DNA of 32,192 nt from an uncultured Clostridia bacterium. GTDB taxonomy: Bacteria > Bacillota > Clostridia > Lachnospirales > CAG-274. This document shows positions 3,817 to 31,540 of the stretch, one piece after another (the first letter of the stretch is position 1; each line of letters begins with the position of its first letter). Below the pieces are notes generated by a model. It made no database searches. It worked only from the letters and a program-made list of their open reading frames with translations, and was not told the DNA's origin. The stretch covers positions 1 to 32,192 of the forward strand of contig CANRNM010000009.1 of assembly GCA_947631975.1 (NCBI GenBank), read 5' to 3'. Position numbers and translations under genes: made by a program.

Positions 3817-4488
3817 ATGGCGAATATAGAGAGCATAAATATAGACGAAGCCTTGAGATATATGGGCTATAAAGACAATATTGACATAGAAAATATAAGG
3901 GATATTATATGTTCCTGCGAAAAAAAGCTTCTTTCCTCTGCCGAGCCAAGATACTGCTATAAAATAGCCGATATAGAACGCTCCGACAAAATAACCGTCA
4001 AAAATACAGACCTTATGCTCGCAGGAAAGAGCATTTCAAGCCATCTTGCAGAATGTCAAAAGGTTATACTGCTTGCCGCAACGCTTTCCGACAAGGCGGA
4101 CAAGCTCATAAGTCTTATGAACGTTACGGATGTTACATCCGCGCTCATAACGGACGCTATGGCAAGCGCCATGACCGAACAGCTCTGCGACATAGCCGAG
4201 GAAGAAATAAGGCGGGAGCACGGCATAAAGCATACCACCTTCAGATTTTCGCCGGGCTACGGTGATTTCCCCATTGATATACAGAGGGATTTCATAAAGA
4301 TATTAAGCGCCGACAAAAAGATAGGACTGACCGCAAACGACAGCAATATTCTCATACCGCGCAAGTCCGTAACGGCAGTAATAGGCATATCGGATAAGCC
4401 CCTGCCCCAAAAGAAAAGAGGCTGTGCGGTATGCAGCATGAACAAAAGCTGTCAATACAAAAAGAGAGGTGCTCACTGTGGATTTTAA
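3817..4488 (+). CDS. Methionine synthase activation-domain protein (stand-alone)
   Basis: This 223-aa protein corresponds to the C-terminal AdoMet-binding reactivation domain of MetH, which reductively methylates oxidised cobalamin back to methylcobalamin. Supporting motifs are FRFSPGYGDFP, the KSVTAVIGIS strand and a cysteine-rich tail (CAVCSMNKSCQYKKRGAHCGF without its fusion partner). In E. coli this domain is fused to MetH; in Thermotoga and many Firmicutes it is a separate gene. I start at 3817 because GGAGG lies 6 nt upstream; the track's earlier start runs through AT-rich leader. The gene overlaps the start of the catalytic subunit by 11 nt, so the two are probably made together. Confidence 0.88.
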   Translation: MANIESINIDEALRYMGYKDNIDIENIRDIICSCEKKLLSSAEPRYCYKIADIERSDKITVKNTDLMLAGKSISSHLAECQKVILLAATLSDKADKLISLMNVTDVTSALITDAMASAMTEQLCDIAEEEIRREHGIKHTTFRFSPGYGDFPIDIQRDFIKILSADKKIGLTANDSNILIPRKSVTAVIGISDKPLPQKKRGCAVCSMNKSCQYKKRGAHCGF

Positions 4489-6832
4489 AAAACTGCTTGA
4501 AAAAGACTACATAATACTTGACGGCGCAATGGGTACCATGCTCCAGAAAATGGGACTTAAGCTTGGAGGGATACCCGAGCTTCTGAGTATAACAGACCCC
4601 GAAAAAATAATAAGCATACACAAGAGCTACATTGAAGCGGGCTCCGACATAGTATATGCCAACACCTTCGGAGCGAACAGATATAAGCTAAAGGATTGCA
4701 AATACAGCGTGAGCGAGGTCATACAGGCATCCGTAAAATGCGCCAAGAAGGCATGCGAAGGAACTGACACGCTCACGGCTCTTGACATAGGGCCTATAGG
4801 TCAGCTTCTGGAGCCTACGGGAACTCTCGGCTTTGAGGACGCCTACGATATATTCAAAGAACAGATACTAACCGGCAGTGATGCGGACATAATCGTGCTT
4901 GAAACAATGACGGACCTCTACGAGGTCAAGGCGGGACTGCTTGCGGCAAAGGAAAACAGCGACAAGCCCGTTATAGTAACAATGACATTTGAAGAAAACA
5001 AGAGGACGTTTACGGGCTGCTGCATACCCTCAATGGCGCTTACTCTGGAAGGACTTGGAGCGGACGCAATAGGCGTTAACTGCTCTTTGGGTCCTAAAGA
5101 GCTTATACCGATAATAGATGAGCTTTCAAAATGGACAAGGCTTCCCATCGCAGTAAAGCCTAACGCAGGACTGCCCGACCCCGTTACAAACGAATACAAT
5201 GTCGGCGCGGATGAATTTGCCGAGTATATAGCCGAAATGAACAAATACGGCATAAATCTTGTAGGGGGATGCTGCGGCACAGACCCGGAATATATAAAAG
5301 CGGCTGTAAAAGCACTTTCGGGACTTGAGCCAGTTAAAAGGGAAAAAAACATTCCCTCCGCAATATGCTCGCCCACCTCGGCGGTCGTCATAGACCAACC
5401 CAGAATAATAGGCGAAAGGATAAATCCCACGGGCAAAAGGCTATTCAAGGAAGCCCTTAAAAACAAAAATATAGAATATATACTCGGTCAGGCTGTGGAG
5501 CAGATACAGGGAGGCGCCGAAATACTCGATATTAATGTCGGTCTTCCCGATATTGACGAAAAAGAAATGATGGTTAAGGTCATAAAGGCTGTTCAGGGTA
5601 TAGCGGAAACGCCTTTGCAGATAGATTCCACAGACCCCGCAGTGTTGGAGGCTGCGCTTAGGGTCTATAACGGAAAACCGCTTGTTAACTCGGTGAACGG
5701 CGAGGATGAAAGTCTTGAAAAAATACTTCCTCTTATCAAAAAATACGGCGCGGCGGTGCTTGGACTTACTCTGGATAAAAACGGCATACCCAAAAAAGCC
5801 GATGAAAGATTTGAAATAGCAAAAAAAATAATGAACAGAGCCCTTGAATACGGCATATCTAAGGAAAATATATTCATAGACTGCCTTACTCTCACTGCCT
5901 CGGCAGAACAGGAGGCGGTTATGGAAACGCTTGACGCTCTTGAAAGAGTTAAAAAGGAATTGGGGCTTAAGACCGTTCTGGGCGTTTCAAATATTTCTTT
6001 CGGACTGCCAAACAGGGGACTTATAAACAGTACATTTCTCACTATGGCGCTCACAAAAGGTCTTGACCTCCCTATAATAAATCCCAATATGGAAGCCATG
6101 ACGGGCGCTGTGAGAGCTTACAGACTGCTTGCCTGTCATGATAAAAATTCAAGCGATTTTATAGAGCACTACGGCTCGGATGTGCATGAAACAACAGAAA
6201 AAAAGGACGCAGACTACAGCCTCGAATACGCCATAGAAAAGGGACTAAAGGAAAAGGCAAGAGAAATAACCACGGCTTTGCTTGAAAAGCATGACGCCAT
6301 GGAGATAATAAACACAATGATAATACCCGCTCTGGACAAAGCGGGCTCGGATTTTGAAACGGGCAGAATATTCCTTCCTCAGCTTATACTCTCGGCAGGA
6401 GTGGCGCAGGAGGCTTTCGACGTGCTAAAGAAAAGCATAGCATCATCGAATGAAAGCTCCGTTGAAAAAGGCAAAATTGTATTGGCGACCGTAAAGGGAG
6501 ATGTGCACGACATAGGCAAAAACATTGTAAGGGTACTGCTTGAAAACTACGGCTACAATGTTATAGACTTGGGCAAGGATGTGGCGTACGAGGAGGTATT
6601 GAGGGCTGTTAACGAAAACGACTGTCATCTCGTGGGGCTGAGCGCGCTTATGACTACAACGCTTGGCTCTATGGCTGATACAATAAAGCTTTTGAGAGAG
6701 AATAACTGCGACTGTAAAATAATGGTGGGCGGAGCCGTGCTCACACCCGAATATGCAGAAAAAATAGGCGCCGACTATTATTCAAAAGACGCAAAGCAGT
6801 CTGTGGACATAGCAAAAGAAGTACTCGGCTGA
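4478..6832 (+). CDS. metH: Cobalamin-dependent methionine synthase, catalytic subunit without activation domain
   Basis: The enzyme transfers a methyl group from methyltetrahydrofolate via cobalamin to homocysteine. The 784-aa protein has the homocysteine domain (LDGAMGTMLQ; zinc cysteines in GVNCSLGP and GGCCGTDP), the pterin-binding barrel (IGERINPTGKRLFKEAL, LDINVGLPD, QIDSTDP), a helical cap, and the cobalamin domain with GDVHDIGKNIV near residue 675 supplying the cobalt-ligating histidine. It ends right after the cobalamin domain, whereas E. coli MetH (about 1227 aa) continues into the activation domain encoded here by the preceding gene. The GTG at 4478 is preferred over the GTG at 4469 because GAGAGG sits 8 nt before it. 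A strong terminator follows. Confidence 0.94.
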   Translation: MDFKKLLEKDYIILDGAMGTMLQKMGLKLGGIPELLSITDPEKIISIHKSYIEAGSDIVYANTFGANRYKLKDCKYSVSEVIQASVKCAKKACEGTDTLTALDIGPIGQLLEPTGTLGFEDAYDIFKEQILTGSDADIIVLETMTDLYEVKAGLLAAKENSDKPVIVTMTFEENKRTFTGCCIPSMALTLEGLGADAIGVNCSLGPKELIPIIDELSKWTRLPIAVKPNAGLPDPVTNEYNVGADEFAEYIAEMNKYGINLVGGCCGTDPEYIKAAVKALSGLEPVKREKNIPSAICSPTSAVVIDQPRIIGERINPTGKRLFKEALKNKNIEYILGQAVEQIQGGAEILDINVGLPDIDEKEMMVKVIKAVQGIAETPLQIDSTDPAVLEAALRVYNGKPLVNSVNGEDESLEKILPLIKKYGAAVLGLTLDKNGIPKKADERFEIAKKIMNRALEYGISKENIFIDCLTLTASAEQEAVMETLDALERVKKELGLKTVLGVSNISFGLPNRGLINSTFLTMALTKGLDLPIINPNMEAMTGAVRAYRLLACHDKNSSDFIEHYGSDVHETTEKKDADYSLEYAIEKGLKEKAREITTALLEKHDAMEIINTMIIPALDKAGSDFETGRIFLPQLILSAGVAQEAFDVLKKSIASSNESSVEKGKIVLATVKGDVHDIGKNIVRVLLENYGYNVIDLGKDVAYEEVLRAVNENDCHLVGLSALMTTTLGSMADTIKLLRENNCDCKIMVGGAVLTPEYAEKIGADYYSKDAKQSVDIAKEVLG

Positions 6833-6835
6833 AAT

Positions 6836-6866
6836 AAAAACCCACCCGTTTTACGGGTGGGTTTTT
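6836..6866. terminator. Bidirectional terminator between metH and htrA
   Basis: AAAAA-CCCACCCG-TTTTA-CGGGTGGG-TTTTT forms a perfect 8-bp GC stem flanked by A and T tracts. It therefore works as an intrinsic terminator on both strands between the convergent genes. Confidence 0.95.
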
Positions 6867-6869
6867 ATT

Positions 6870-8009
6870 TTAGAAATTATCCGCGCTCTCGCGCATCTTT
6901 ACGGAAACTGTCTTTGTCTGACCATTCCTTACGATAGTTATATTTACAGTCTGTCCTATCTTGCACTTCTTGACAGCCGACATAAGCTGTTCGGTATTGA
7001 ATACCGGAGTGCCGTCAAACGACGTTACAAGGTCTCCCGGCTGTATATCGGCATAGCTTGCGCTTCCTCCGGGTATTATCTGTTCTATCTTAACGCCTGC
7101 CTGCGGGAGATTGTTCTGCTGAGCTATCTCCGCGGATACGCTTGTGATATATACTCCGAGGGTGGGCGTGCTCTTGCTGTTCATAAGCTCCTCTATTATG
7201 GGCTTTGCAACATCGGAGGCAATGCTGTAGCCTATGCCCTCAACGGTCGTCATAGATATTTTTGCGGTGTTTATACCTATTACCTGTCCTCTGCTGTTAA
7301 CAAGCGCGCCGCCACTGTTGCCGGGGTTTATAGCCGCATCCGTCTGCAAAACGGTAAGCTCTGTACCCTGAATATTAACATCTCTAGTCTGCGAGCTCAA
7401 TATGCCCTTTGTGGCTGTATTGCCCTCGCCCAGCGCGTTTCCTATGGCTATGACGGTTTCGCCTACCTTGACCTCCTCGGAATTTCCGAATTCGGCAACC
7501 TGAACGTTGCTTACGCCTGCCTTTGCAAGGTCGCTTAATGAAACGGATATTACCGCAAGGTCTGCGTTTGCATCCTTGCCCACAAGCTTGGCGTTTACAA
7601 GGTCGCAGTTGTTAAGCGATATGCTTACAGTTGACGAACCCGAAATAACATGGTTGTTTGTGACGATATAAGCGTTTTCGCTGTCCTTATGGAATACTAC
7701 GCCCGAGCCTGCGCCCTTGCTCTGATAAGCCATATTGAAATAGCTTATGCCTTCCGTAATGGTTGTTATACAAGCTATAGAAGGCTGTACCTTATTTATT
7801 ATCTCAACGGTATTTTTTGACGCCTCGTCCATTGTCGTTTTGACTTCTCCGTCGTTTTCGGAGGGCAGAAGCGCGACATCATCCGATACGGCAGGCTTCC
7901 TGCTGTTTTCTATCACATGCGTTGTTACGGGTATCACCGCGCCTGTGCAAAGTCCTATGACACCGCAGGCAACTACAGCCGCAGCCATTTTTTTGATATA
8001 CTTCATCAT
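6870..8009 (-). CDS. HtrA/DegP-like S1C serine protease, membrane-anchored (shorter paralogue)
   Basis: HtrA proteins are envelope quality-control proteases. The 379-aa protein has one N-terminal membrane segment (MAAAVVACGVIGLCTG), a trypsin-like domain with the full triad (TNNHVIS, the Asp in NADLAVISV, Ser in NPGNSGGALVNS), and one C-terminal PDZ domain (around GDLVTSFDGTPV). The catalytic part should face outside the cell. The start ATGATG follows GGAGGG by 9 nt. It lies 17 nt behind a longer paralogue of the same architecture, so both probably share a transcript. Which numbered HtrA of other Firmicutes each matches cannot be told from sequence reading alone. Confidence 0.92.
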   Translation of the reverse strand: MMKYIKKMAAAVVACGVIGLCTGAVIPVTTHVIENSRKPAVSDDVALLPSENDGEVKTTMDEASKNTVEIINKVQPSIACITTITEGISYFNMAYQSKGAGSGVVFHKDSENAYIVTNNHVISGSSTVSISLNNCDLVNAKLVGKDANADLAVISVSLSDLAKAGVSNVQVAEFGNSEEVKVGETVIAIGNALGEGNTATKGILSSQTRDVNIQGTELTVLQTDAAINPGNSGGALVNSRGQVIGINTAKISMTTVEGIGYSIASDVAKPIIEELMNSKSTPTLGVYITSVSAEIAQQNNLPQAGVKIEQIIPGGSASYADIQPGDLVTSFDGTPVFNTEQLMSAVKKCKIGQTVNITIVRNGQTKTVSVKMRESADNF

Positions 8010-8026
8010 TTTATATCACCCTCCTT

Positions 8027-9451
8027 TCAGAACTGCTCATTCTGATTTTGAAGCACGGCTGTTATAGTCATTTCTTTCATGCCGTCCCTCACTATGGTAA
8101 GCTGTATGCTGTCGCCCGATTTATGCGACGATATGGCTTTTGAAAGAGCATCCACATCCGACACGGCTTTTCCGTCTATGGCGGTTATTATATCGCTGAC
8201 CTGAAGCCCCGCCTTTTCTGCGGCAGAGCCCGATTCAATGCTGTAAACGAATATGCCCGGTATGTCTATGCCGTATATCCTCTCAAAGTTATCGTCTATG
8301 GTATAGCCCGATATGCCGAGATAAGGCTTATCAACGGTGCCGTTCTGCATGAGCGTGTCTATTATGGACTGCGCTGCCGACATAGGTATTGCATAGCCTA
8401 TGCCCTCAACGGCGCTGCTGGAAAGCTTAGCGGTATTAATGCCTATTACCTCGCCCGCGGTATTGATGAGCGCGCCGCCGCTGTTGCCGGGGTTTATTGC
8501 CGCGTCTGTCTGTATGACGGTAAGCTTTTTGCCGTCTATATTTATTTCCTTATTCTGTGCGCTTATTATGCCAAGCGTGGATGTCTTGCCCTGTCCCAGA
8601 GCGTTTCCTATGGCGATCACATTTTCGCCTACCTCCATATTGTCGGAGCTTCCGAACTTAGCCGCCGTAACGTCGTTTACGCCTGCCGCCGCAAGGTCCT
8701 TCTTGGATACGGATATTACTGCCAGATCCGATGTTGCGTCCTTGCCCACAAGCTTGGCGTTGACCTGTTCGTTTCCCGTTATGGAAATGGCAACCGAATT
8801 TGCATCCTCCACAACATGATTGTTTGTAACAATATAAATGGTATCTCCGTCGACCTTATATATTACGCCCGAGCCCGAGCCCTCGCTTTCATATACCTGA
8901 CCGAACCAGTCGGCTGCCGACTGAGCCTTTATTGAAATATTTACAACGGAATTTTTCACGCCGTCTATTACCTTTACAATGCTGTCCTCCGATGCCGTGA
9001 GATTGACTGCGGGAGAAGCGTCCACACCGCTGTCTTCGCTTTCTTCAGCCTTGTTATTGCTGAAGCTGAAGCCGCCTGTAACGGCGTCCGTAAGAGCCTT
9101 TGAGGTGTTGAGCCCAAGCCCCAGGCAATAGCCCAGAGAGCCGCCGCACAAAAGAACTCCCGCAAGCCCTATGGCAATACTCTTTTTGTAAGAATATTTT
9201 TTTGCCGTGTCCTTGGCGTTATCCTCCGCGCCGTTTTCATCGGTCTTATAAGCTTCGGCTTCGTCCTCCGTATTCTGTGCGAACACGGTGTCGCTCCCGC
9301 CGTCATTATTGTATTCAGAGGCTTCTGTTACCGACTCGGCGCTTTCTGCGTTTTCAAAAGAGGTTACATCGGCTTCTGAATTGTCCGGCTTATTATCAAT
9401 AAACTCATTTTCGTTTTCATTTACGTTTGTTTTTTCAAATTCTTCATTCAT
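8027..9451 (-). CDS. HtrA/DegP-like S1C serine protease with acidic cytosolic extension (longer paralogue)
   Basis: The 474-aa protein opens with about 100 residues rich in Glu, Asp, Asn and Ser, followed by a basic KKYSYKKS stretch and a single membrane helix (IGLAGVLLCGGSLGYCLG). Then come a trypsin-like domain with intact triad (TNNHVVED, TSDLAVISV, NPGNSGGALIN) and one PDZ domain (GLQVSDIITAIDG). The topology implies an acidic tail in the cytosol and the protease outside. This matches the layout of Bacillus HtrA-type proteins. I start at 9451 where AAGGAGG lies 7 nt upstream; the track start at 9478 lies upstream of that site. It is the promoter-proximal gene of the pair. Confidence 0.92.
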   Translation of the reverse strand: MNEEFEKTNVNENENEFIDNKPDNSEADVTSFENAESAESVTEASEYNNDGGSDTVFAQNTEDEAEAYKTDENGAEDNAKDTAKKYSYKKSIAIGLAGVLLCGGSLGYCLGLGLNTSKALTDAVTGGFSFSNNKAEESEDSGVDASPAVNLTASEDSIVKVIDGVKNSVVNISIKAQSAADWFGQVYESEGSGSGVIYKVDGDTIYIVTNNHVVEDANSVAISITGNEQVNAKLVGKDATSDLAVISVSKKDLAAAGVNDVTAAKFGSSDNMEVGENVIAIGNALGQGKTSTLGIISAQNKEINIDGKKLTVIQTDAAINPGNSGGALINTAGEVIGINTAKLSSSAVEGIGYAIPMSAAQSIIDTLMQNGTVDKPYLGISGYTIDDNFERIYGIDIPGIFVYSIESGSAAEKAGLQVSDIITAIDGKAVSDVDALSKAISSHKSGDSIQLTIVRDGMKEMTITAVLQNQNEQF

Positions 9452-9672
9452 AATAAAAACCTCCTTTGCTGTTTTCAAACATATTTTATCAGCATTTGAA
9501 GCAAAAAGTGTGAATATTTTGTGAACATTTGCCTGCTTTATGCAATTTTAATGCCTCTTTAATATTTGCTTAATAAATTCATAATCGCTATTTAAGAATT
9601 GTATATAAATTGCGGGGTAACAGCGAGACGGCATACCGCATATAATTAAATATATATTATTTAGGTGATTAT
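9452..9672. other. Divergent intergenic region between htrA pair and amidase
   Basis: About 220 bp of AT-rich sequence without a convincing ORF. A TATAAT lies at about 9640 (in GCATATAATTAA) in the direction of the amidase, but its 17-nt upstream partner (TAACAG) is poor. The promoter may therefore use another sigma factor or an activator. I see no clear sigma-A promoter for the htrA pair. Confidence 0.4.
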
Positions 9673-10203
9673 ATGAGGATATTTTTAGACCCGGGTCATG
9701 GAGGTTCAAATCCCGGCGCAGTGGGAGCAAACGGACTTGAAGAAGCGGATGTAAATCTGGATGTGGCGCTTAAAACGGGCAGACTGCTGCAAGCTGAAGG
9801 CTATACAGTAAACTATTCCAGAACGGACGATAAAAACGTAAGCCTTGCCGAAAGAGCGGCTCTTGCCAATCAATGGGGAGCGGACTATTTTGTGAGCATA
9901 CACTGCAACTCAAATGTAAACCCCATTTACAAGGGCACATCGACATATTTTTACAGAACGGGCACTATAGCCGAAAGTCTTGCACTTACCGTAAACAATG
10001 CTCTTGTTGAGGAGACAGACACAAAGGACTTGGGTATATTTTCCGCTAATTTTGCAGTGCTTAGGCTCACAAGAATGCCCGCGGTGCTTGTGGAGCTTGC
10101 CTTCATAAGCAATCCCGAGGAGGCGGAGCTTCTTGGCACGGAGAGCTTCAGACAAAAATGCGCCATAGGCATTTCAAGAGGAATAATAGCCTTTACAAGC
10201 TGA
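9673..10203 (+). CDS. N-acetylmuramoyl-L-alanine amidase (Amidase_3), no signal peptide
   Basis: The enzyme cuts the bond between N-acetylmuramic acid and the stem peptide of peptidoglycan. The 176-aa protein is essentially a bare Amidase_3 domain with the zinc ligands and catalytic glutamate in place: His in DPGHGG, Glu in LEEADVN, His in SIHCNS, and Glu in VELAFISNPEEAELL. It starts directly at the first strand (MRIFLDPGHGG), with no signal peptide or binding domain. It must reach its substrate by a non-classical route, act after lysis, or work in a special compartment such as the forming spore; the sequence does not decide. AGGTGA lies about 5 nt upstream of the ATG. A terminator follows. 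Confidence 0.9.
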   Translation: MRIFLDPGHGGSNPGAVGANGLEEADVNLDVALKTGRLLQAEGYTVNYSRTDDKNVSLAERAALANQWGADYFVSIHCNSNVNPIYKGTSTYFYRTGTIAESLALTVNNALVEETDTKDLGIFSANFAVLRLTRMPAVLVELAFISNPEEAELLGTESFRQKCAIGISRGIIAFTS

Positions 10204-10209
10204 AACACA

Positions 10210-10236
10210 AAACCACCGACAAAAAATCGGTGGTTT
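10210..10236. terminator. Bidirectional terminator after amidase and cyclophilin genes
   Basis: AAACCACCGA and TCGGTGGTTT form a perfect 10-bp stem around a 7-nt A-rich loop. It sits between two convergent genes with AT-rich flanks on both sides. Confidence 0.85.
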
Positions 10237-10255
10237 ATATAATTTATAATTTTTA

Positions 10256-11071
10256 TTAATATGTTCCAATATCTATGCTGTTTATAATTACATCCTCTAT
10301 GGGCTTGTCGTTTTGAGTCGGTACTGCAGCGATCTCATCTACAATGGTTATGCCCTCGTACACCTGACCGAATACGGTATATGCCAGGTCGAGATAGGGA
10401 TAGCCGCCGCCTGCGTATGCGTCTATTACTTCCTGCGGGAATACATCGCCGTTTGTGAGCGTCTTGCCGTCCTTATTCTTGAACATAAGATTGCCGTTGA
10501 TATAGTCCTCGTCCATATTGAAGCCCTTTATTGCGTTCTGCATTTCCTCTCCCTGCGAATTCTGTACAATATAGAACTGGCTTCCGTTTGTGTCGGGACC
10601 TGCGTTTGCCATGCAAAGCGCGCCTCTTATATTTCTGAGGTCAAGCGACACCTCGTTTTCAAAAGCATCGCCCCATATGCTCTCTCCTCCGGTACCGTTG
10701 CCGTTGGGATCTCCGCCCTGTATCATGAACTGATTTATAACTCTGTGGAATGTAAGACCGTTGTAATAGCCCTCCGTTGCGTGAGTTGTGAAGTTTTCAA
10801 CTGCCTTGGGCGCATACTCGGGGAAAAGACGAACCTTTATGTCGCCGTGATTTGTATGGAAAACCGCTACGGGGTCTCCCTGCTTTACTGCCTCAAGCTG
10901 AGGAAGCGACTTGAAATCATCCAAAACAACAGTGCCGTACTGAGGCTGTTCTTCATCCGCAATGCCCGATTCCTCGGAGCTGCTCGAAGCGGAGCTCTCA
11001 CTCTTTCCGCATGCGCATAAGCTTGTCAAAGCCATTACAAGTGTAAGCGCAATAATAACTTTTTTCTTCAT
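10256..11071 (-). CDS. Cyclophilin-type peptidyl-prolyl isomerase, lipoprotein
   Basis: This is a secreted foldase that interconverts cis and trans proline bonds. The 271-aa precursor has a lipoprotein signal peptide (MKKKVIIALTLVMALTSLCACG) whose cysteine at the LCAC lipobox would be lipidated. A Ser-rich linker follows, then a cyclophilin domain with FHRVINQFMIQGGDPNGNGTGG, NEVSLDLRNIRGALCMANAGPDTN (split here by normal family spacing) and GSQFYIV. The active-site Arg, Phe, Gln and Gly pattern is kept. A 17-18 residue insertion before TLTNGDVF is common in clostridial homologues. Its own consensus promoter lies upstream, so it is probably monocistronic and constitutive. Confidence 0.93.
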   Translation of the reverse strand: MKKKVIIALTLVMALTSLCACGKSESSASSSSEESGIADEEQPQYGTVVLDDFKSLPQLEAVKQGDPVAVFHTNHGDIKVRLFPEYAPKAVENFTTHATEGYYNGLTFHRVINQFMIQGGDPNGNGTGGESIWGDAFENEVSLDLRNIRGALCMANAGPDTNGSQFYIVQNSQGEEMQNAIKGFNMDEDYINGNLMFKNKDGKTLTNGDVFPQEVIDAYAGGGYPYLDLAYTVFGQVYEGITIVDEIAAVPTQNDKPIEDVIINSIDIGTY

Positions 11072-11121
11072 ATCCTTATCCCCTTTACAAAATGATTATA
11101 GGATTTATATCCATTATATCT

Positions 11122-11150
11122 ATAATATTTAATTATCCTTTTTTTGTCAA
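11122..11150 (-). promoter_or_regulatory. Promoter of the cyclophilin gene
   Basis: On the minus strand TTGACA (11150-11145), 17 nt, TATTAT (11127-11122), about 50 nt upstream of the start codon. Near-perfect housekeeping consensus. Confidence 0.8.
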
Positions 11151-11188
11151 GAGATAAATTGAAATTTAATTATTAAATATAGCATATA

Positions 11189-11722
11189 TCAATTAAGAGC
11201 GTCATATATGCTGTCGGCTATCACCTCGGACATATTCATCACTACGGACAATCTGGTGCTCTGGAGCTGATTTATGCCGTTTAGGCTCCATTTATTTACT
11301 ATACCCGTTATTGAAATGTCCCCTATTCTGGAAAGCTTTTTGGATATTCCCGCGCCGGGGCTGAGAGAGCCCTCCCAAATGCTTAGGCTGCCAATGTGGT
11401 CGTATATGCCGAGGCTGGCGTCAATAGCTATTACCATGGGTTTATCGTAGGTATCATAGAGCTGTTTTATTTTTTCATCCATATTGACGGCGTGTACGGG
11501 TCTGTCTATAGTGCCCATTACATTATCCATACCCAAGGACATAAGCCTTGTGCCCACAAGAGGACCCAGCGAGTCGCCCGTCGCCCTGTCGGTGCCGATG
11601 CAGAATATAACTATGCAGTTATGTTTGTCCTTATGGTTTGAGATATGTTTTTTTATACTGCTGCTAAGCATATGCCTGCAGTTGATGTCCGATACAGATA
11701 TATATTCCCTGTCGCTGTACAC
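11189..11722 (-). CDS. yyaC: YyaC-family spore protein (DUF1256, GPR-endopeptidase-like)
   Basis: The 177-aa protein carries CIGTDRATGDSLGPLVG, DRPVHAVN and AIDASLG, the signature of the YyaC/DUF1256 family. This family is related to the germination protease fold and is limited to spore formers. Its exact role is unknown; the family is usually linked to sporulation or germination. The start is GTG at 11722 with GAGGTGG upstream. It sits divergent from the MPN-like/LysM gene across a 177-bp gap. Its presence is the best indication here that the organism sporulates. Confidence 0.85.
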   Translation of the reverse strand: MYSDREYISVSDINCRHMLSSSIKKHISNHKDKHNCIVIFCIGTDRATGDSLGPLVGTRLMSLGMDNVMGTIDRPVHAVNMDEKIKQLYDTYDKPMVIAIDASLGIYDHIGSLSIWEGSLSPGAGISKKLSRIGDISITGIVNKWSLNGINQLQSTRLSVVMNMSEVIADSIYDALN

Positions 11723-25532: not shown

Positions 25533-26393
25533 TTACGCTCTGAATACAAGCATTTTGTCGCTGAGCGCGGCATAGTCGTTTAAACTTAGGCTTTCGCCCC
25601 GCACTCTCTCGTAATAGCCCAGCTCTTTTAAAACCGAGGCTATGCCTTCCTTGTCAAGAGATGTGATGCCGCTGTTGTAAATACAGTTTACAAGAGTTTT
25701 TCTTCTTTGAGCGAAGGCTGCCTTTATAAACAAAAACATGAACTGTTCGTCCTTCACCTCCACCTCGGGCTTATCGAGAACGGTAAGCTTTATGACGGCG
25801 GAGTCTACATTGGGTCTTGGCATAAAGCAGTTCTGCGGTACATTTGCCACAAGATATGGCTTGCAGTAATACTGTGTAACAAGCGAAAGCGAGCCGTAGT
25901 CCTTTGTGGACGGCGAGGCGTTCATTCTGTACGCCACTTCCTTTTGTATCATTACCGTAAGGCTTTCCATGGGAATATGCTTTTCAAGTATATTCATTAT
26001 TATGGGTGTTGTGATATTATAGGGGAGGTTTGCCACCATTTTGACGGTCATGCCGGGGTGAGCCGATATAATATCGTTTAAATCCACCTTAAGTATGTCC
26101 TCGTTTATTATCTCCACATTGTTATGATCGGAGAGAAGCTCCTCCAAAATTGGCACAAGTGTTTTGTCTATCTCTACGGAAATCACCTTACCCGCCTTTT
26201 TTGCCATTGCCTGCGTGAGCGTACCTATGCCGGGGCCCACCTCTATAACAAGGTCGTTTTCGCCTATGTCGGCAGCGGAAATTATTTTGTCCAGAACTCT
26301 CTCATCCACGAGAAAGTTCTGTCCAAAATTTTTTTTGAAATTAAATTCGTAATGCTTTATTATTTGCTTTGTCTTATAAGCCAGACTTTCCAT
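25533..26393 (-). CDS. rsmA: 16S rRNA dimethyladenosine transferase
   Basis: RsmA (KsgA) dimethylates two adjacent adenines in helix 45 of 16S rRNA, a late step of small-subunit assembly. The 286-aa protein has NFKKNFGQNFLVD, the AdoMet motif VIEVGPGIGTLTQ, the catalytic NLPYNITTPI (NLPY) and FMPRPNVDSAVIKL near the C-terminal part. All are intact and the length is normal. The ATG overlaps the alaS stop (TAATG), implying coupled translation. The same transcript likely begins at the T-box leader of alaS. Confidence 0.97.
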   Translation of the reverse strand: MESLAYKTKQIIKHYEFNFKKNFGQNFLVDERVLDKIISAADIGENDLVIEVGPGIGTLTQAMAKKAGKVISVEIDKTLVPILEELLSDHNNVEIINEDILKVDLNDIISAHPGMTVKMVANLPYNITTPIIMNILEKHIPMESLTVMIQKEVAYRMNASPSTKDYGSLSLVTQYYCKPYLVANVPQNCFMPRPNVDSAVIKLTVLDKPEVEVKDEQFMFLFIKAAFAQRRKTLVNCIYNSGITSLDKEGIASVLKELGYYERVRGESLSLNDYAALSDKMLVFRA

Positions 26394-29029
26394 TATTTTA
26401 AACTTTCCTCAACAGTCTTCATTGCGCTTTCGAGTGCCTGCGGTATCTTTGAAGCGTCCTTGCCTCCCGCCTGAGCCATATTGGGGCGTCCGCCTCCGCC
26501 GCCTCCGCATACGGTCGCAGCGGCTTTGACGATATTCCCTGCGTTTGCTCCCGCTTTAACGGCGGACTCGCTGCACATAACAACAAAGCTGCATTTGCTG
26601 CCTTCGCCGCTTGCAAGAACTATTATGCCGTCAAGCTTATCCTTTATCTGGTCGCCCATCGTCCTTAAGCCGTTCATATCAAGACCCTTGGCTTCGGACA
26701 TAACCACATCTATGCCCTTTACATTTACCTTGCTGTTTATTATATCGTCCACGAGAGAACCGCTCATCTTTGCTTTAAGGCTTTCTATCTCCTTTGAAAG
26801 ACGCTTATTTTCATCCACAATGTGAGCTATTCTCTTGGGTATATCCCCCGTTGTGATCTTGAGAAGGTCGCCTATAGACTTAAGAGCAAATTCCTGCTCC
26901 TCGTAATACGAAAGAGCTCCTGCGCCCGTGAGGGCTTCTATTCTTCTGACGCCCGCAGCCACTCCGTTTTCGGAAAGAAGCTTGAATGTACCGCAGTAAG
27001 CGGAGTTTGTAAGGTGTGTGCCTCCGCAGAATTCTATTGAATATCCGCCTATATCCACTACTCTTACTATATCGCCGTATTTTTCACCGAAAAGCGCCGT
27101 TGCTCCCGTCTTCTTAGCCTCGTCTATGGACATTTCCTTTACTGTTACGGGCAGAGCCTCAAGTATTTTTTCATTCACCTTTTTCTCTATAGTACCGAGG
27201 GTCTCCTTGTCTATGGCTTCAAAATGAGTGAAGTCAAATCTAAGTCTTTTATCATTTACGAAAGAACCCGCCTGCTCAACATGGCTTCCAAGCACTTCCT
27301 TTAAAACAGCCTGCAGAATATGCGTTGCGGTGTGGTTTCTGGCTGTGGAAAGTCGCTTTGCGCCGTCTACCTCCAAGGTGAGGGTATCGCCCGTGTTTAC
27401 CGCGCCCGAAACAACTGTGCCGGTATGAACATATTTATTACCGCCGAACTTTGTGCAGTCCTCGATCTCTATTTTAACATTGTCGTTATAGGCTATACCG
27501 CTGTCGCCTGCCTGACCGCCCATTTCTGCATAGAAAGGCGTATTGTCCATGATTATGGAAACCTTATCGCCCTCGGATGCGCTTTCTGTTATTTCATCAT
27601 CCAAAACTATTGCAAGTACCTTTCCGTCTGCCTTAAGATCGTCATAACCGCAGAACTCCGTGGACATTGCGGGATCTAACCTATGGAATACGGTCTCCTC
27701 GGCGCCCATGTAGGTGTCGGTCGCTCTGGCGTTTCTTGCCCTCGTCCTCTGCTTTTCCATTTCAGCCTTAAATGCTTTTTCATCGAGGCTGAAGCCCTCG
27801 TCGGCAAGTATTTCCTCCATAAGGTCAACGGGGAAGCCGTAGGTATCATACATCTTGAAAGAGTCCTCTCCGCCAAGCACCTTTTTGCCGTTTGCTTTAA
27901 GCTCCTCAAGCTTGGAGGCAAGCATTGCCATACCCGTGTCGAGAGTGGCATAAAATCTTTCTTCCTCCGTAGTGAGCACCTTAAGTATCATATCCTGCTT
28001 TTCAACAAGCTCGGGATATGCCTTGCCCGAATTGTCTATAACCACCTTGCAGAGCTCCGCAAGGAATTTTCTGTCTATACCAAGGAGCTTGCCGTGTCTT
28101 GCCGCCCTTCTCAAAAGTCGTCTCAAAACATAGCCCCTGCCCTCGTTTGAGGGAAGAACGCCGTCTGCTGTCATGAATGTAACGGAACGCACATGGTCTG
28201 TTATGACTCTTATTGAAACATCCTTTTTGTAGTCCTCGCCGTATTTTGCTCCGCATATGCTGCATACGGCATCTCTTATGGCTTTCACGGTGTCTACATC
28301 GAATATTGAATTTACACCCTGCATAACGGTGGCTATTCTTTCAAGACCCATGCCCGTGTCTATGTTGGGATGAGAAAGGTCGGAATAAGAGCCGTCCTCC
28401 TCCTTGTTGAACTGGGTGAAAACAAGGTTCCATATCTCCATGTATCTGTCGCAGTCGCAGCCTACGGTACAGTCGGGCTTTCCGCAGCCGAATTCCTCGC
28501 CCTTATCGTAATATATTTCCGAGCAGGGACCGCAGGGACCTACGCCGTGCTCCCAGAAATTGTCCTCCTTGCCCATTCTGAAAATCCTTTCGGGCGCAAG
28601 ACCTATTTCCTTGTTCCATATGTCATAGGCTTCGTCGTCGTCCTGATAGACCGAAACATAGAGTCTGTCCTCGGGAAGCTCCACTACCTTTGTGAAGAAC
28701 TCCCAAGCCCAAGCGATAGCCTCGTGCTTGAAATAGTCTCCGAATGAGAAATTGCCCAGCATCTCAAAGAATGTGCCGTGTCTTGCCGTCTTTCCCACAT
28801 TTTCGATATCGCCCGTTCTTATGCACTTCTGGCATGTGGTTACCCTTTTCCTCGGGGGTATCTGCTGACCCGTAAAAAAGGGCTTTAAAGGCGCCATGCC
28901 CGAATTGATGAGAAGAAGGCTCTTGTCGTTTTGAGGCACCAAAGAGGCGCTTGCCATTCTGAGATGACCCTTGCTCTCAAAAAATGAGAGATATTTTTCT
29001 CTTATTTCGTTTACACCCATGAATTTCAT
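26393..29029 (-). CDS. alaS: Alanyl-tRNA synthetase
   Basis: Charges tRNA-Ala. The 878-aa protein is full length: a class II catalytic core (FFESKGHLRMASASLVP, LLINSGMAPLKPFF, RHGTFFEMLGNFSFGDYF), the helical tRNA-binding part, and the editing domain with HTATHILQAVL and CGGTHL zinc/editing residues. A C-terminal coiled segment and C-Ala domain ending in GGGGGGRPNMAQAGG complete it. GGAGGAAAAC gives the ribosome site. Expression is controlled by a T-box leader upstream. It forms an overlapping unit with rsmA. Confidence 0.98.
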   Translation of the reverse strand: MKFMGVNEIREKYLSFFESKGHLRMASASLVPQNDKSLLLINSGMAPLKPFFTGQQIPPRKRVTTCQKCIRTGDIENVGKTARHGTFFEMLGNFSFGDYFKHEAIAWAWEFFTKVVELPEDRLYVSVYQDDDEAYDIWNKEIGLAPERIFRMGKEDNFWEHGVGPCGPCSEIYYDKGEEFGCGKPDCTVGCDCDRYMEIWNLVFTQFNKEEDGSYSDLSHPNIDTGMGLERIATVMQGVNSIFDVDTVKAIRDAVCSICGAKYGEDYKKDVSIRVITDHVRSVTFMTADGVLPSNEGRGYVLRRLLRRAARHGKLLGIDRKFLAELCKVVIDNSGKAYPELVEKQDMILKVLTTEEERFYATLDTGMAMLASKLEELKANGKKVLGGEDSFKMYDTYGFPVDLMEEILADEGFSLDEKAFKAEMEKQRTRARNARATDTYMGAEETVFHRLDPAMSTEFCGYDDLKADGKVLAIVLDDEITESASEGDKVSIIMDNTPFYAEMGGQAGDSGIAYNDNVKIEIEDCTKFGGNKYVHTGTVVSGAVNTGDTLTLEVDGAKRLSTARNHTATHILQAVLKEVLGSHVEQAGSFVNDKRLRFDFTHFEAIDKETLGTIEKKVNEKILEALPVTVKEMSIDEAKKTGATALFGEKYGDIVRVVDIGGYSIEFCGGTHLTNSAYCGTFKLLSENGVAAGVRRIEALTGAGALSYYEEQEFALKSIGDLLKITTGDIPKRIAHIVDENKRLSKEIESLKAKMSGSLVDDIINSKVNVKGIDVVMSEAKGLDMNGLRTMGDQIKDKLDGIIVLASGEGSKCSFVVMCSESAVKAGANAGNIVKAAATVCGGGGGGRPNMAQAGGKDASKIPQALESAMKTVEESLK

Positions 29030-29049: not shown

Positions 29050-29077
29050 TAAAAAGCCCCCGCTAAAGTGCAGGGGC
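29050..29077 (-). terminator. T-box regulated terminator of alaS
   Basis: Minus strand GCCCCTGC-ACTTTA-GCGGGGGC followed by TTTTTAA. The stem has 8 pairs with one wobble, and the antiterminator competes for its 5' flank. Confidence 0.88.
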
Positions 29078-29284
29078 GAAAATATTTTCACGGTACCACC
29101 CTGATTTACGCTAAAAAGCGTATCTCATAGCTATCGTTAACGCCGATAAAACGGCAGAGTATTGGTCTGCGCGGGATAATGAATATCAAAAGGGAGCTTC
29201 GCCTTACACAGCGCAAATGCTTTCACCTGCCGCATTCTCTCTGGAGCTTATGCATAAGACTACTTATCCTTCCGTTTTAAGCTG
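29050..29284 (-). ncRNA. T-box riboswitch (alanine) in the alaS leader
   Basis: Reading the minus strand, the leader contains the T-box core AGGGTGGTACCG (29102-29091), whose TGGT pairs with the ACCA end of uncharged tRNA. An intrinsic terminator follows directly. Upstream are Stem I features: an AGTA-type bulge in GGATAAGTAGTC, a CCAGAGAG segment, and a specifier region GAAGCTCCC in which GCT (29197-29195) is an alanine codon. Uncharged tRNA-Ala should switch the leader from terminator to antiterminator and raise alaS expression. The match to the downstream gene confirms the specifier choice. Confidence 0.92.
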
Positions 29285-29290
29285 TTAAAT

Positions 29291-29326: not shown

Positions 29327-29791
29327 TTACATTATTTTGTTCAAAATAAAGTATACCACGGTATAGACAAACAGTATAAAACAGGCAAAATAAATGATGG
29401 TGTTGCTTACTGTAATATTAATGGGCAGATAATATACATCCAGAATGAGCGCGGCAATAAATGAAATATTGACGGCAATATACATAGCCTTATTGCTTAG
29501 CATTATATTTCTTTCATCCTTTGAACGAGTGATATACTTCTTTAAAAGTTTTTCATTCTTTAGAAGCTTTAACATACGTAAAATACCGACCGCGCCTATA
29601 ACCGTAAATACCGCCGAAAGGCTCTCATACTGCACAAGCGACCTTCCTTCGAACTTTGCAATGTAGTCTATATTTGTAAACTTAAGCAATATCATTATTA
29701 TGCCTCCCAAAAGATATACCGCATACAGCATATGTTTTAACATATATTCCTTTTTTGCGCCTTCCATATCAAAGTTATTGTTATTTTCCAT
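29327..29791 (-). CDS. Four-helix membrane protein, operon partner of the XRE regulator (separated by the IS)
   Basis: The 154-aa protein is unnamed. It has four predicted membrane helices (LYAVYLLGGIIMILL, a second from SLSAVFTVIGAVGIL, then AMYIAVNISFIAALIL and IIYFACFILFVYTVVYFI), with a cytosolic loop TRSKDERNIMLSNKA. This KDER-loop-between-helices layout is common in small Firmicutes membrane proteins encoded next to a 65-70 aa XRE regulator. That partner is found at 31340-31540, on the other side of the insertion element. The present ribosome site is GAGGAGG; before insertion it would have read AAGGAGG, with the ATG overlapping the regulator's stop. Its original promoter is now about 1.8 kb away, so expression is probably reduced. 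Confidence 0.75.
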   Translation of the reverse strand: MENNNNFDMEGAKKEYMLKHMLYAVYLLGGIIMILLKFTNIDYIAKFEGRSLVQYESLSAVFTVIGAVGILRMLKLLKNEKLLKKYITRSKDERNIMLSNKAMYIAVNISFIAALILDVYYLPINITVSNTIIYFACFILFVYTVVYFILNKIM

Positions 29792-29802
29792 TATTTTTCC
29801 TC

Positions 29803-29804
29803 CT
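29803..29804. repeat. CT core dinucleotide, left junction of the IS
   Basis: Left copy of the two-base core shared by both junctions. The bases on either side differ between left and right, so the shared sequence is exactly CT. Confidence 0.8.
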
Positions 29805-29806
29805 CG

Positions 29807-29812
29807 TATTAT
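29807..29812 (+). promoter_or_regulatory. -10 half of the circle-junction promoter (left end)
   Basis: TATTAT lies 2 nt inside the left end. When the ends join at CT it lies 17 nt from the TTGACT near the right end, giving TTGACT-N17-TATTAT, which would transcribe the bridge RNA from about 29820. Confidence 0.75.
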
Positions 29813-29866
29813 ATAGTTATAGTGTTTAAAGCCCTGAAACAGGACTTATGTTATAATGTATAAGAT

Positions 29867-29927
29867 ACTGTGGATCAGTGAATTCCTCCTACCACATGAT
29901 GGTTTAATATAAGGCTCTGACCACAGT
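29867..29927 (+). ncRNA. Bridge RNA target-binding loop
   Basis: Stem ACTGTGG-(A)-TCAG / CTGA-CCACAGT, 11 pairs with one bulge. On the 5' side TTCCTCCT (29883-29890) is identical to the left flank 29797-29804, including the CT core. On the 3' side TTAATATAAG (29904-29913) pairs with CTTGTATAAA at the right flank (31352-31361): 9 of 10 positions, counting one G-U, with a single A-A mismatch. It therefore still describes the site where the element sits. Confidence 0.88.
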
Positions 29928-29933
29928 CTCTTT

Positions 29934-30003
29934 GTACACTTGTTAATTAGTTAGATACCGCATGACGGTTTATTTAGAACGAGGTTACAATCGCAAGGAG
30001 TAC
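29934..30003 (+). ncRNA. Bridge RNA donor-binding loop
   Basis: Stem GTAC-(A)-CTTG / CAAG-(GA)-GTAC. The 5' side contains TAGTTAG (29948-29954), identical to the right end of the element (31344-31350), stopping one base before the core. The 3' side ACGAG (29979-29983) pairs with CTCGT at the left junction (core plus first element bases, 29803-29807). Pairing continues to 29815 with two mismatches and one wobble. The loop thus recognises the joined ends of the circular form. Confidence 0.83.
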
Positions 30004-30051
30004 CTGTGGCTCTAAACAGTATCAAATTTATTTTAAAAGGAGTTTTTCTGT

Positions 30052-31221
30052 ATGATTTTTGTAGGTATCGATGTTGCTAAGAATAAACATGACTGCTTTA
30101 TTATCAATTCTGATGGTGAAATCCTTTCTGATGTATTCACCATAGAAAACAACAAGGTGGGTTTTGATAAGCTTTATGAGAAAATTACTTCCGTTGCTGT
30201 TGATTTGTCCAATATAAAAGTAGGACTTGAGGCTACGGGACATTACAGCTATAACATTCTGGAGTATCTCCTCAATAAGGGTTTATCTGCGTATGTTATA
30301 AACCCACTACATACTAGTCTTTACAGAAAAAGTCTAAGCCTTAGAAAGACGAAAACCGATAAGGTGGACGCTCGCACTATCGCTATGATGTTAATGTCTG
30401 ATGTAGACCTTAAGTCCTACTCAGATACATTATACCACAACCAAGAGCTAAAGTCACTAACTCGTTATCGTTTTGATAAGGTTTCTGAACGTGCCAAGCT
30501 CAAGCAGTCCGTTTCAAGACTTGTTACCATACTCTTCCCAGAGCTTGAAAAGCTTGTCTCAACTATCCATTCAGCTTCGGTATATGCTTTGCTCTGCGAA
30601 TTTCCCGGTGCTTCCCTTATTGCCAATGCAAATATCACAAGGCTTTCAAACTTATTGATAAAGGCTTCAAAGGGAAGACATACTAAAGACTTTGCTTTGA
30701 CTGTAAAGGAAGCTGCCATAAATTCCATAGGCTCATCTATGCCTGCTAAATCTCTTGAATTAAAGCATACCATAAAGCTTATACAAGAACTAAACAGCGA
30801 AATAGATGAAATAGAAGCCGAAATACTTAATATCATGAATGAGATCGATTCTCCTATTTTAAGCATCCCCGGTATCAACTACCGTATGGGAGCAATGATA
30901 CTTGCCGAAATCGGTGATTTCAACAGATTTGATTCTCCCGATAAGATACTTGCTTATGCAGGTCTTTCTCCCTCTACTTATCAATCGGGACAGCTTATAT
31001 CCTCTCATTCAAAAATGGAGAAAAGAGGTTCCAGATACTTGCGATATGCTCTCTTTAATGCTGCAAAATATGTTTGCATATGGGATCCTACCTTTGCCGC
31101 TTATCTTGCCAAAAAACGTGCCGAAGGTAAGCATTATTATGTTGCAGTATCTCATGCAGCCAAAAAGCTTGTAAGAGTTATTTTTCATCTTGTAAAAACA
31201 GGTGAGCTTTATGCAAAATAA
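30052..31221 (+). CDS. IS110-family DEDD transposase/recombinase
   Basis: The 389-aa protein has the RuvC-like N-terminal domain with catalytic acids D7 (VGIDVAKNKHD), E60 (VGLEATGHYSY), D103 and D106 (KTDKVDARTIA). A coiled region follows, then the C-terminal domain (ILSIPGINYRMGAMILAEIGDF, ILAYAGLSPSTYQSGQ, KRGSRYLRYALFNAAK) with the presumed nucleophile serine in QSG (S312). All key residues are present, so it should be active. IS110 recombinases use a bridge RNA to pair donor and target DNA. AAAAGGAG lies 9 nt before the ATG. Confidence 0.96.
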   Translation: MIFVGIDVAKNKHDCFIINSDGEILSDVFTIENNKVGFDKLYEKITSVAVDLSNIKVGLEATGHYSYNILEYLLNKGLSAYVINPLHTSLYRKSLSLRKTKTDKVDARTIAMMLMSDVDLKSYSDTLYHNQELKSLTRYRFDKVSERAKLKQSVSRLVTILFPELEKLVSTIHSASVYALLCEFPGASLIANANITRLSNLLIKASKGRHTKDFALTVKEAAINSIGSSMPAKSLELKHTIKLIQELNSEIDEIEAEILNIMNEIDSPILSIPGINYRMGAMILAEIGDFNRFDSPDKILAYAGLSPSTYQSGQLISSHSKMEKRGSRYLRYALFNAAKYVCIWDPTFAAYLAKKRAEGKHYYVAVSHAAKKLVRVIFHLVKTGELYAK

Positions 31222-31247
31222 CCGTTAATTTTTAAACTCCTTCTTTC

Positions 31248-31270
31248 GAGCACCTTTTGATGCTCTTTTT
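31248..31270 (+). terminator. Probable terminator of the transposase mRNA
   Basis: GAGCA-CCTTTTGA-TGCTC followed by TTTTTG, 27 nt after the stop. The 5-bp stem is short, so it is tentative. Confidence 0.5.
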
Positions 31271-31332
31271 GTCATGCAGTTTTCAATGTTCTTTTGATTC
31301 AAAATATTTCTTTGGATTTTAATAATTTTGTC

Positions 31333-31361
31333 TTGACTTTTAATAGTTAGTCTTGTATAAA
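31333..31361 (+). promoter_or_regulatory. -35 at the right end; outward promoter with the present flank
   Basis: TTGACT (31333-31338) is the -35 half of the circle-junction promoter. In the integrated form the flank supplies TATAAA (31356-31361) at the same 17-nt distance. This makes an outward promoter that would read antisense into the XRE gene. Confidence 0.6.
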
Positions 31362-31540
31362 AATATTTCCTCTATGGGCAGTTCAAAAAGCCTCGATATT
31401 TTGAAAGCAAGCTCCAGAGAGGCGACATACTTTTCCTTTTCAAGCGATATGACCGTCTGCCTTGTAACTCCAAGAGCCTCTGCCAGCCCTTCCTGAGAAA
31501 GCCCTCTTTGCTTTCTCAGCTCTTGTATTCTTGTTTTCAT
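31340..31540 (-). CDS. Small XRE-family transcriptional regulator, C-terminus altered by IS insertion
   Basis: The 66-aa protein is a bare helix-turn-helix repressor: RIQELRKQRGLSQEGLAEALGVTRQTVISLEKEKY, then ISRLFELPIEEIFLY. The last codons TNY and the stop come from the right end of the IS. Joining the flanks at CT changes the ending from LYKTNY to LYKEEK followed by TAA. That stop would overlap the ATG of the membrane protein gene at 29791. The DNA-binding part is untouched, so the regulator may still work. AAGGAGG precedes the ATG. A palindromic site at the transcription start suggests autoregulation. Confidence 0.9.
   Translation of the reverse strand: MKTRIQELRKQRGLSQEGLAEALGVTRQTVISLEKEKYVASLELAFKISRLFELPIEEIFLYKTNY
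31352..31353. repeat. CT core dinucleotide, right junction of the IS
   Basis: Right copy of the core. With 29803-29804 it marks the exchange point used to rebuild the empty site TTCCTC-CT-TGTATAAA. Confidence 0.8.

What the first reader, a model, noticed from the sequence alone, without database searches (positions are those of the whole stretch)
29820..30024. An IS110 bridge RNA whose target and donor guides can be read from this one locus
Seen in sequence: the non-coding left end of the IS110 element folds into two stem-loops, each with an internal loop capped by a CATGA hairpin whose stem differs by a compensatory change (ACCA/TGGT versus ACCG/CGGT). In loop 1 TTCCTCCT equals the left flank through the CT core, and TTAATATAAG pairs with the right flank at 9 of 10 positions. 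In loop 2 TAGTTAG equals the right end of the element, and ACGAG pairs with the left junction CTCGT. Known: IS110 recombinases use bridge RNAs with a target loop and a donor loop meeting at a core dinucleotide (IS621, core CT). Inference: this is an intact, self-consistent bridge RNA system with its own guide set.
Basis: partly seen in the sequence, partly recalled or inferred. Interest (0 to 1): 0.92.

Follow-up and report, generated by a model that had tools for sequence, protein, structure and literature searches.

The report
Bridge RNA of ribosome-site-targeting IS110
The stretch encodes the guide RNA of a jumping gene (IS110 family) that steers it to the ribosome-binding site in front of other genes; the element itself is a new example of a known kind, but close relatives appear to have twice become RNA-guided switches that flip pairs of pilin genes.

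Summary
The observation and the reading both hold. Window 29803-31351 is an IS110-group element with a CT core, a DEDD/Ser recombinase (30052-31221) and a two-loop bridge RNA in its left end. An uninterrupted target in a congener gives its exact ends. Over 49 unique insertions of homologues, both target guides track both flanks (LTG 267/343 matches against 168 permuted, RTG 212/343 against 129; none of 20,000 permutations comes near), and a two-hairpin structure shows strong covariation. The donor guides match the element's ends. This is a new member of a known kind (IS621-type bridge RNA). The clade's target guide resembles the anti-Shine-Dalgarno sequence: 37 of 49 insertions lie next to the start of an oppositely oriented gene, against 17% of random positions. 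IS900 is a precedent for such targeting.

The surprise lies in relatives. In three genomes, from at least two origins, an intact recombinase of this clade has a guide RNA with only the target loop, no donor loop and no element ends. The two best guide matches near it are inverted sites at the Shine-Dalgarno of two pilin genes, present exactly twice per genome. I infer natural RNA-guided pilin invertases with a one-loop guide (probability about 0.7). Inversion itself was not seen.

The parts
29803..31351 (+). IS110-group element, 1549 bp counting one copy of the CT core
   Evidence: Uninterrupted target in congener G005 (L003) equals the joined window flanks with one CT; single copy in its own genome
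29803..29804 (+). left CT core dinucleotide
   Evidence: empty-site comparison; conserved in relatives
31352..31353 (+). right CT core dinucleotide
   Evidence: empty-site comparison
29820..30024 (+). predicted two-loop bridge RNA; the 5' end is inferred from the junction promoter, the 3' end is not determined
   Evidence: covariation of two hairpins in 35 relatives; fold z = -2.5
29864..29930 (+). target-binding hairpin (cap ACCA-CATGA-TGGT at 29891-29903)
   Evidence: helices 1 and 2: 96.6% and 100% paired, 9 pairs with double changes
29883..29890 (+). left target guide TTCCTCCT, ending in CT
   Evidence: equals the left flank; tracks flanks of 49 insertions
29904..29913 (+). right target guide TTAATATAAG
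   Evidence: pairs with the right flank 31352-31361; tracks flanks of 49 insertions
29931..30002 (+). donor-binding hairpin (cap ACCG-CATGA-CGGT at 29957-29969)
   Evidence: helices 3-5, 8 pairs with double changes
29948..29954 (+). left donor guide TAGTTAG
   Evidence: equals the right end of the element 31344-31350
29979..29983 (+). right donor guide ACGAG
   Evidence: pairs with left junction CTCGT 29803-29807; covaries in relatives
30052..31221 (+). IS110 recombinase, 389 aa; catalytic D7, E60, D103, D106 and S312
   Evidence: Pfam PF01548 and PF02371; IS621 8wt6 E=5.8e-22; catalytic residues invariant in 60 homologues
31333..31338 (+). -35 box TTGACT in the right end; 17 nt from the -10 when the ends are joined in a circle
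   Evidence: RE-CT-LE junction rebuilt
29807..29812 (+). -10 box TATTAT in the left end
   Evidence: conserved in 35 relatives as TATTAT or TATAAT
29797..29804 (+). left half of target, TTCCTCCT; on the minus strand the Shine-Dalgarno AGGAGGAA of gene 29327-29791
31352..31361 (+). right half of target, CTTGTATAAA
29327..29791 (-). target gene, 154 aa, weak DUF6442-like; cut off from its operon partner by the element
31340..31540 (-). 66-aa HTH regulator; the insertion changes its C-terminus from KEEK to KTNY
   Evidence: uninterrupted reading in G005

Best explanation
This is the bridge RNA of an intact IS110-group insertion sequence. Shown by sequence: exact element ends, a two-loop RNA in the left end, guides that match target and donor, and an intact DEDD/Ser recombinase. 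Inferred from IS621: when the element is circular, the joined ends form a promoter (TTGACT-N17-TATTAT) that drives the RNA; the target loop pairs with both strands of a target around CT and the donor loop with the joined ends; two recombinase dimers exchange strands at CT. The left target guide carries an anti-Shine-Dalgarno-like sequence (CCTCCT), so the element goes in beside the ribosome-binding site of a gene facing the other way and leaves that site intact. Here it separated an HTH regulator from its operon partner.
For: Precise uninterrupted target in a congener. Guide-flank covariation over 49 insertions, beyond all 20,000 permutations. Two-hairpin covariation. Donor-end covariation. 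Catalytic residues of IS621 conserved. In the window without the element, the guide's best match is the real site. 37 of 49 insertions have an oppositely oriented ORF start 8-21 nt from the core (33 ATG), against 17% (8% ATG) of random positions.
Against: No transcript or activity data. The window guide matches its site at 13 of 16 positions, not all. The donor hairpin does not fold well on its own (z = +0.8); it rests on covariation. Only one copy in the genome, so recent mobility is shown by relatives (copies at several sites in G015, G304, G336, G568), not by this genome.
Confidence: 0.94

Rival explanations
1. The element is a dead copy: the bridge RNA is a relic whose guides no longer work.
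For: Single copy in the genome; RTG is imperfect against its own flank.
Against: Open reading frame with all catalytic residues; near-identical RNA in copies at other sites in G015; mismatches of this size occur in many relatives.
Confidence: 0.15
2. The paired stem-loops are a cis-acting leader of the transposase gene (attenuator or translational control), not a guide RNA.
For: It lies just upstream of the gene.
Against: The loop letters track external flanks of each copy, which a leader would not do; the two-loop arrangement matches that published for IS621 bridge RNAs.
Confidence: 0.02
3. The Shine-Dalgarno preference is only a by-product of a CT core and AT-rich intergenic DNA, not of the guide.
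For: The core CT and usually a preceding C are shared by nearly all copies; part of the match is therefore constant.
Against: Guide variants without CCTCC (TTTCCT in L019, ATTTCCT in L067, CCCACCT in L083) have flanks with the same letters. SD-type guides prevail, and most insertions lie 8-21 nt from a start codon, well above random positions.
Confidence: 0.15

Closest known systems
IS621 bridge RNA (IS110 group; Durrant 2024 PMC11208160, Hiraizumi 2024 PMC11208158)
   Same: Bridge RNA in the left end with a target loop followed by a donor loop, CT core, promoter formed by joined ends, DEDD plus Ser recombinase
   Different: Recombinase 389 aa against about 326; target is a Shine-Dalgarno region, not REP elements; the left donor guide stops short of the core
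seekRNA of IS1111/IS110 elements (Siddiquee 2024 PMC11187229)
   Same: RNA from the non-coding region guides target choice of a DEDD transposase
   Different: Here the non-coding region is upstream; no long subterminal inverted repeats were seen
IS900 (IS110 family; Doran 1997, cited in PMC8141618)
   Same: Reported by title to target translation initiation signals; from my own memory, it lies opposite to the target gene
   Different: From memory, IS900 inserts between Shine-Dalgarno and start codon; here the insertion is just upstream of the Shine-Dalgarno, and the guide that explains it is visible
Piv invertase of Moraxella (Piv/MooV family)
   Same: IS110-related DEDD recombinase that inverts a segment with two type IV pilin genes; same layout as the one-loop relatives L118 and L119
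   Different: No guide RNA for Piv in the papers I could search; the one-loop relatives descend from this Clostridia IS clade

Membership tests
IS110 family, IS110 group | DEDD (RuvC-like) domain plus Tnp domain with catalytic Ser | tested here: met
   PF01548 and PF02371; D7, E60, D103, D106, S312 align with IS621 D11, E60, D102, D105, S241
IS110 family, IS110 group | bridge RNA in the left end, upstream of the gene | tested here: met
IS110 family, IS110 group | target-loop guides match both flanks around a dinucleotide core | tested here: met
IS110 family, IS110 group | donor-loop guides match the element's own ends | tested here: met
   the left donor guide is out of register with the core by one base
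IS110 family, IS110 group | joined ends form a sigma70-type promoter | tested here: met
   TTGACT-N17-TATTAT when the ends are joined; sequence only
IS110 family, IS110 group | RNA is expressed, binds the recombinase and directs recombination | not testable with these tools
   needs experiment
IS1111 group | bridge RNA in the right end and long subterminal inverted repeats | tested here: not met
   covarying two-loop RNA lies in the left end; the right end is about 130 nt; subterminal repeats were judged by eye only
Piv-type pilin invertase (for the one-loop relatives L118, L119, L111, not the window) | IS110-like recombinase beside two pilin genes flanked by inverted recombination sites | tested here: met
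Piv-type pilin invertase (for the one-loop relatives L118, L119, L111, not the window) | inversion of the segment occurs | tested here: inconclusive
   both type IV pilin loci are held in the same orientation; only one genome per species

The most novel reading that the evidence does not exclude
The clade of the window element has at least twice been turned into a natural RNA-guided DNA invertase. A full-length recombinase keeps a guide RNA of about 70 nt with only the target loop, loses the donor loop and the element ends, and joins two inverted copies of one guide-matched site at the Shine-Dalgarno of two pilin genes, so that inversion changes which pilin has the promoter. A recombinase served by one loop acting on two equal sites would be a simpler form of bridge-RNA recombination than any in the papers I could search.
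Probability: 0.7. Interest if true: 0.9.

Novelty: new member of a known kind. Interest (0 to 1): 0.62.

Why it matters
The window element adds a well-tested bridge RNA with exact ends and a large natural set of guide-target pairs. It gives a plain reason why an IS110 element lands at ribosome-binding sites: its guide looks like the anti-Shine-Dalgarno sequence. The one-loop relatives, if they work as inferred, show that half a bridge RNA is enough for recombination between two equal sites. That would link bridge RNAs to pilin phase variation of the Piv kind, raise the question whether Piv itself has a guide, and suggest a very small programmable inversion system.

Tried and rejected
Rfam: no family matches the RNA. 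Searching for more one-loop cases by a pattern (guide hairpin 18-48 nt from the start codon): only the already known genome in 397 genomes of family f6, none in viral contigs, and in 399 genomes of the phylum one hit whose matched sequence is that of the 3' end of a two-loop RNA like L038's. Relatives of the L111 recombinase in 329 genomes of its order: those whose left end could be read all had two loops. An outward promoter in the left end that could drive the target gene: a -10 is there because TATTATA is nearly its own complement, but I saw no -35 by eye; not claimed. The 1563-bp circular plasmid record L108 as proof of a circular intermediate: the junction has 5 extra bases (CACCT), so it is only suggestive. 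Partial matches in congener G001: contigs that break inside related multi-copy elements, not short derivatives.

Full report
1. The element. The window holds a recombinase gene at 30052-31221 (+) with both IS110 Pfam domains and a phmmer match to the solved IS621 structure. Congeners G005 and G006 match the two flanks next to each other. In G005 (L003) the uninterrupted site reads ATTATTTTTCCTCCTTGTATAAAAATATTTCC, which equals the joined window flanks with one CT. The element is therefore 29803-31351 with CT as the exchanged core. It is a single copy in its own genome. It split an operon: the 66-aa HTH gene (31340-31540, minus strand) ended in KEEK overlapping the next start codon and now ends in KTNY. 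Its partner 29327-29791 keeps its Shine-Dalgarno but lost its upstream DNA.

2. The RNA. Thirty-five non-redundant homologues align over the left end. RNAalifold finds 13 of 34 pairs with changes on both sides. A two-hairpin structure that I wrote from the window sequence is paired in 96.5% of cells. Seventeen pairs have double changes against 5.4 in shuffles, and slid controls fall to 32-44% paired. Joined ends give TTGACT-N17-TATTAT, the kind of promoter reported for IS621 circles, and its start point would be near 29820.

3. Guides and flanks. I extracted guides and flanks from 49 unique insertions. Seven bases of left guide against seven of left flank match at 267 of 343 positions; permuted pairs give 168 (sd 7.5, highest of 20,000: 201). 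The right guide matches at 212 of 343; permuted 129 (sd 7.4, highest 165). Copies of one element share guides, which makes the permutation conservative; the insertion sites differ. Examples: L017 right flank CTAACTTAAA and guide complement CTAACTTAA; L109 CTCCCGAAA on both; L033 left TTTTATCACCT on both. Donor guides covary too: LE CTCG with CGAG, CTTG with CAAG in L023, L024, L028 and L038 (L021 keeps a G-U pair), CTACT with AGTAG in L040, and a CA core throughout in L050. Removing the element from the window in a script, the window guide's best CT among 3692 is the true site.

4. Target. The left guide usually ends in CTCCT, the complement of a Shine-Dalgarno. In 37 of 49 insertions an ORF on the opposite strand starts 8-21 nt from the core (33 with ATG); random positions in the same flanks give 17% (8% ATG). 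So this clade lands next to ribosome-binding sites because its guide says so. IS900 was reported in 1997 to target translation initiation signals (cited in PMC8141618), so the habit has a precedent; the guide explanation is new to me.

5. Mechanism. Shown: ends, RNA structure by covariation, guide matches, intact catalytic residues. Inferred by family: expression from the circle, binding, synapsis of two dimers, strand exchange at CT.

6. One-loop relatives. L029/L118 (G1069), L115/L119 (G1090, same genus) and L088/L111 (G646) encode recombinases of this clade with all catalytic residues, but the RNA before the gene has only the target hairpin (the L111 hairpin folds less convincingly by energy, z = -1.0). 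Donor loop, LE and RE were not found. In each locus I scored every CT for match to the guide. The two best of 1153, 1725 and 2326 are two inverted sites, each at the Shine-Dalgarno of a pilin gene. In G1069 and G1090 they are convergent type IV pilins (N_methyl tested in G1069, where an O-antigen-ligase-like gene lies between), in G646 TrbC/VirB2 pilins pointing away from a segment with the recombinase and a PDDEXK_2 gene. The 20-21-bp site occurs exactly twice, inverted, in each genome. In G646 the identity of the two sites stops just past the guide-matched part, which argues against mere gene duplication; in the type IV pilin loci identity also continues into the coding part. The tree puts L029 and L115 together beside two-loop elements (98/94) and L088 elsewhere, so probably two origins at least (L088 has a long branch). 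I infer guide-directed inversion that swaps pilins behind a promoter, as Piv does in Moraxella. A repressor that only binds is the main rival; intact catalytic residues and paired inverted sites speak against it. I have not seen both orientations, and all three loci are from unnamed or metagenome-assembled genomes.

7. Novelty. The window element is a new member of a known kind. The anti-Shine-Dalgarno-like guide is a useful detail. The one-loop invertases, if real, would be a new kind of RNA-guided recombinase; nothing like them turned up in the papers I could search, but bioRxiv is not held.

Noticed in passing
L118 (G1069:C74) 4296-8184; same locus as L029: Recombinase of this clade with a one-loop guide RNA just upstream (about 5500-5570, minus strand) beside two convergent type IV pilin genes; the guide's two best matches are inverted sites at both pilin Shine-Dalgarnos. 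Likely RNA-guided pilin inversion.
   Followed up: yes
L119 (G1090:C45) 7672-10432: Second species of the genus with the same one-loop RNA, recombinase (87% identical) and inverted pilin sites; the distal pilin start is interrupted by N in the record.
   Followed up: yes
L111 (G646:C3) 8066-11584: Probably independent one-loop case: recombinase and a PDDEXK_2 gene between two inverted sites (26 bp alike) at the starts of TrbC/VirB2-like pilin genes, one heading an operon that looks like a type IV secretion system.
   Followed up: yes
L108 (NZ_OY725734.1), 1563 bp: A circular 'plasmid' record is one element of this clade and nothing else; it looks like a captured circular form, but the junction carries 5 extra bases CACCT.
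   Followed up: partly
L054 (G350:C11): A two-loop element of the clade sits at the start of a gene beginning MKNNNK, as the type IV pilins of L118 do; a possible starting point for domestication.
   Followed up: no
L131, L133-L138 and L140: A subclade whose guide is CAAATTACT rather than anti-Shine-Dalgarno; several insertions still lie shortly upstream of what looks like a gene start.
   Followed up: no
L050: Relative with a CA core: element ends, target flank and both right-hand guides all show CA in place of CT.
   Followed up: partly
L109, phage Roos 20447-25607: A copy of the clade inserted in the genome of a Faecalibacterium phage, directly before orf26.
   Followed up: no
window 29069-29285, minus strand: T-box leader, just above Rfam's threshold, upstream of an 878-aa gene at 26393-29029.
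   Followed up: no
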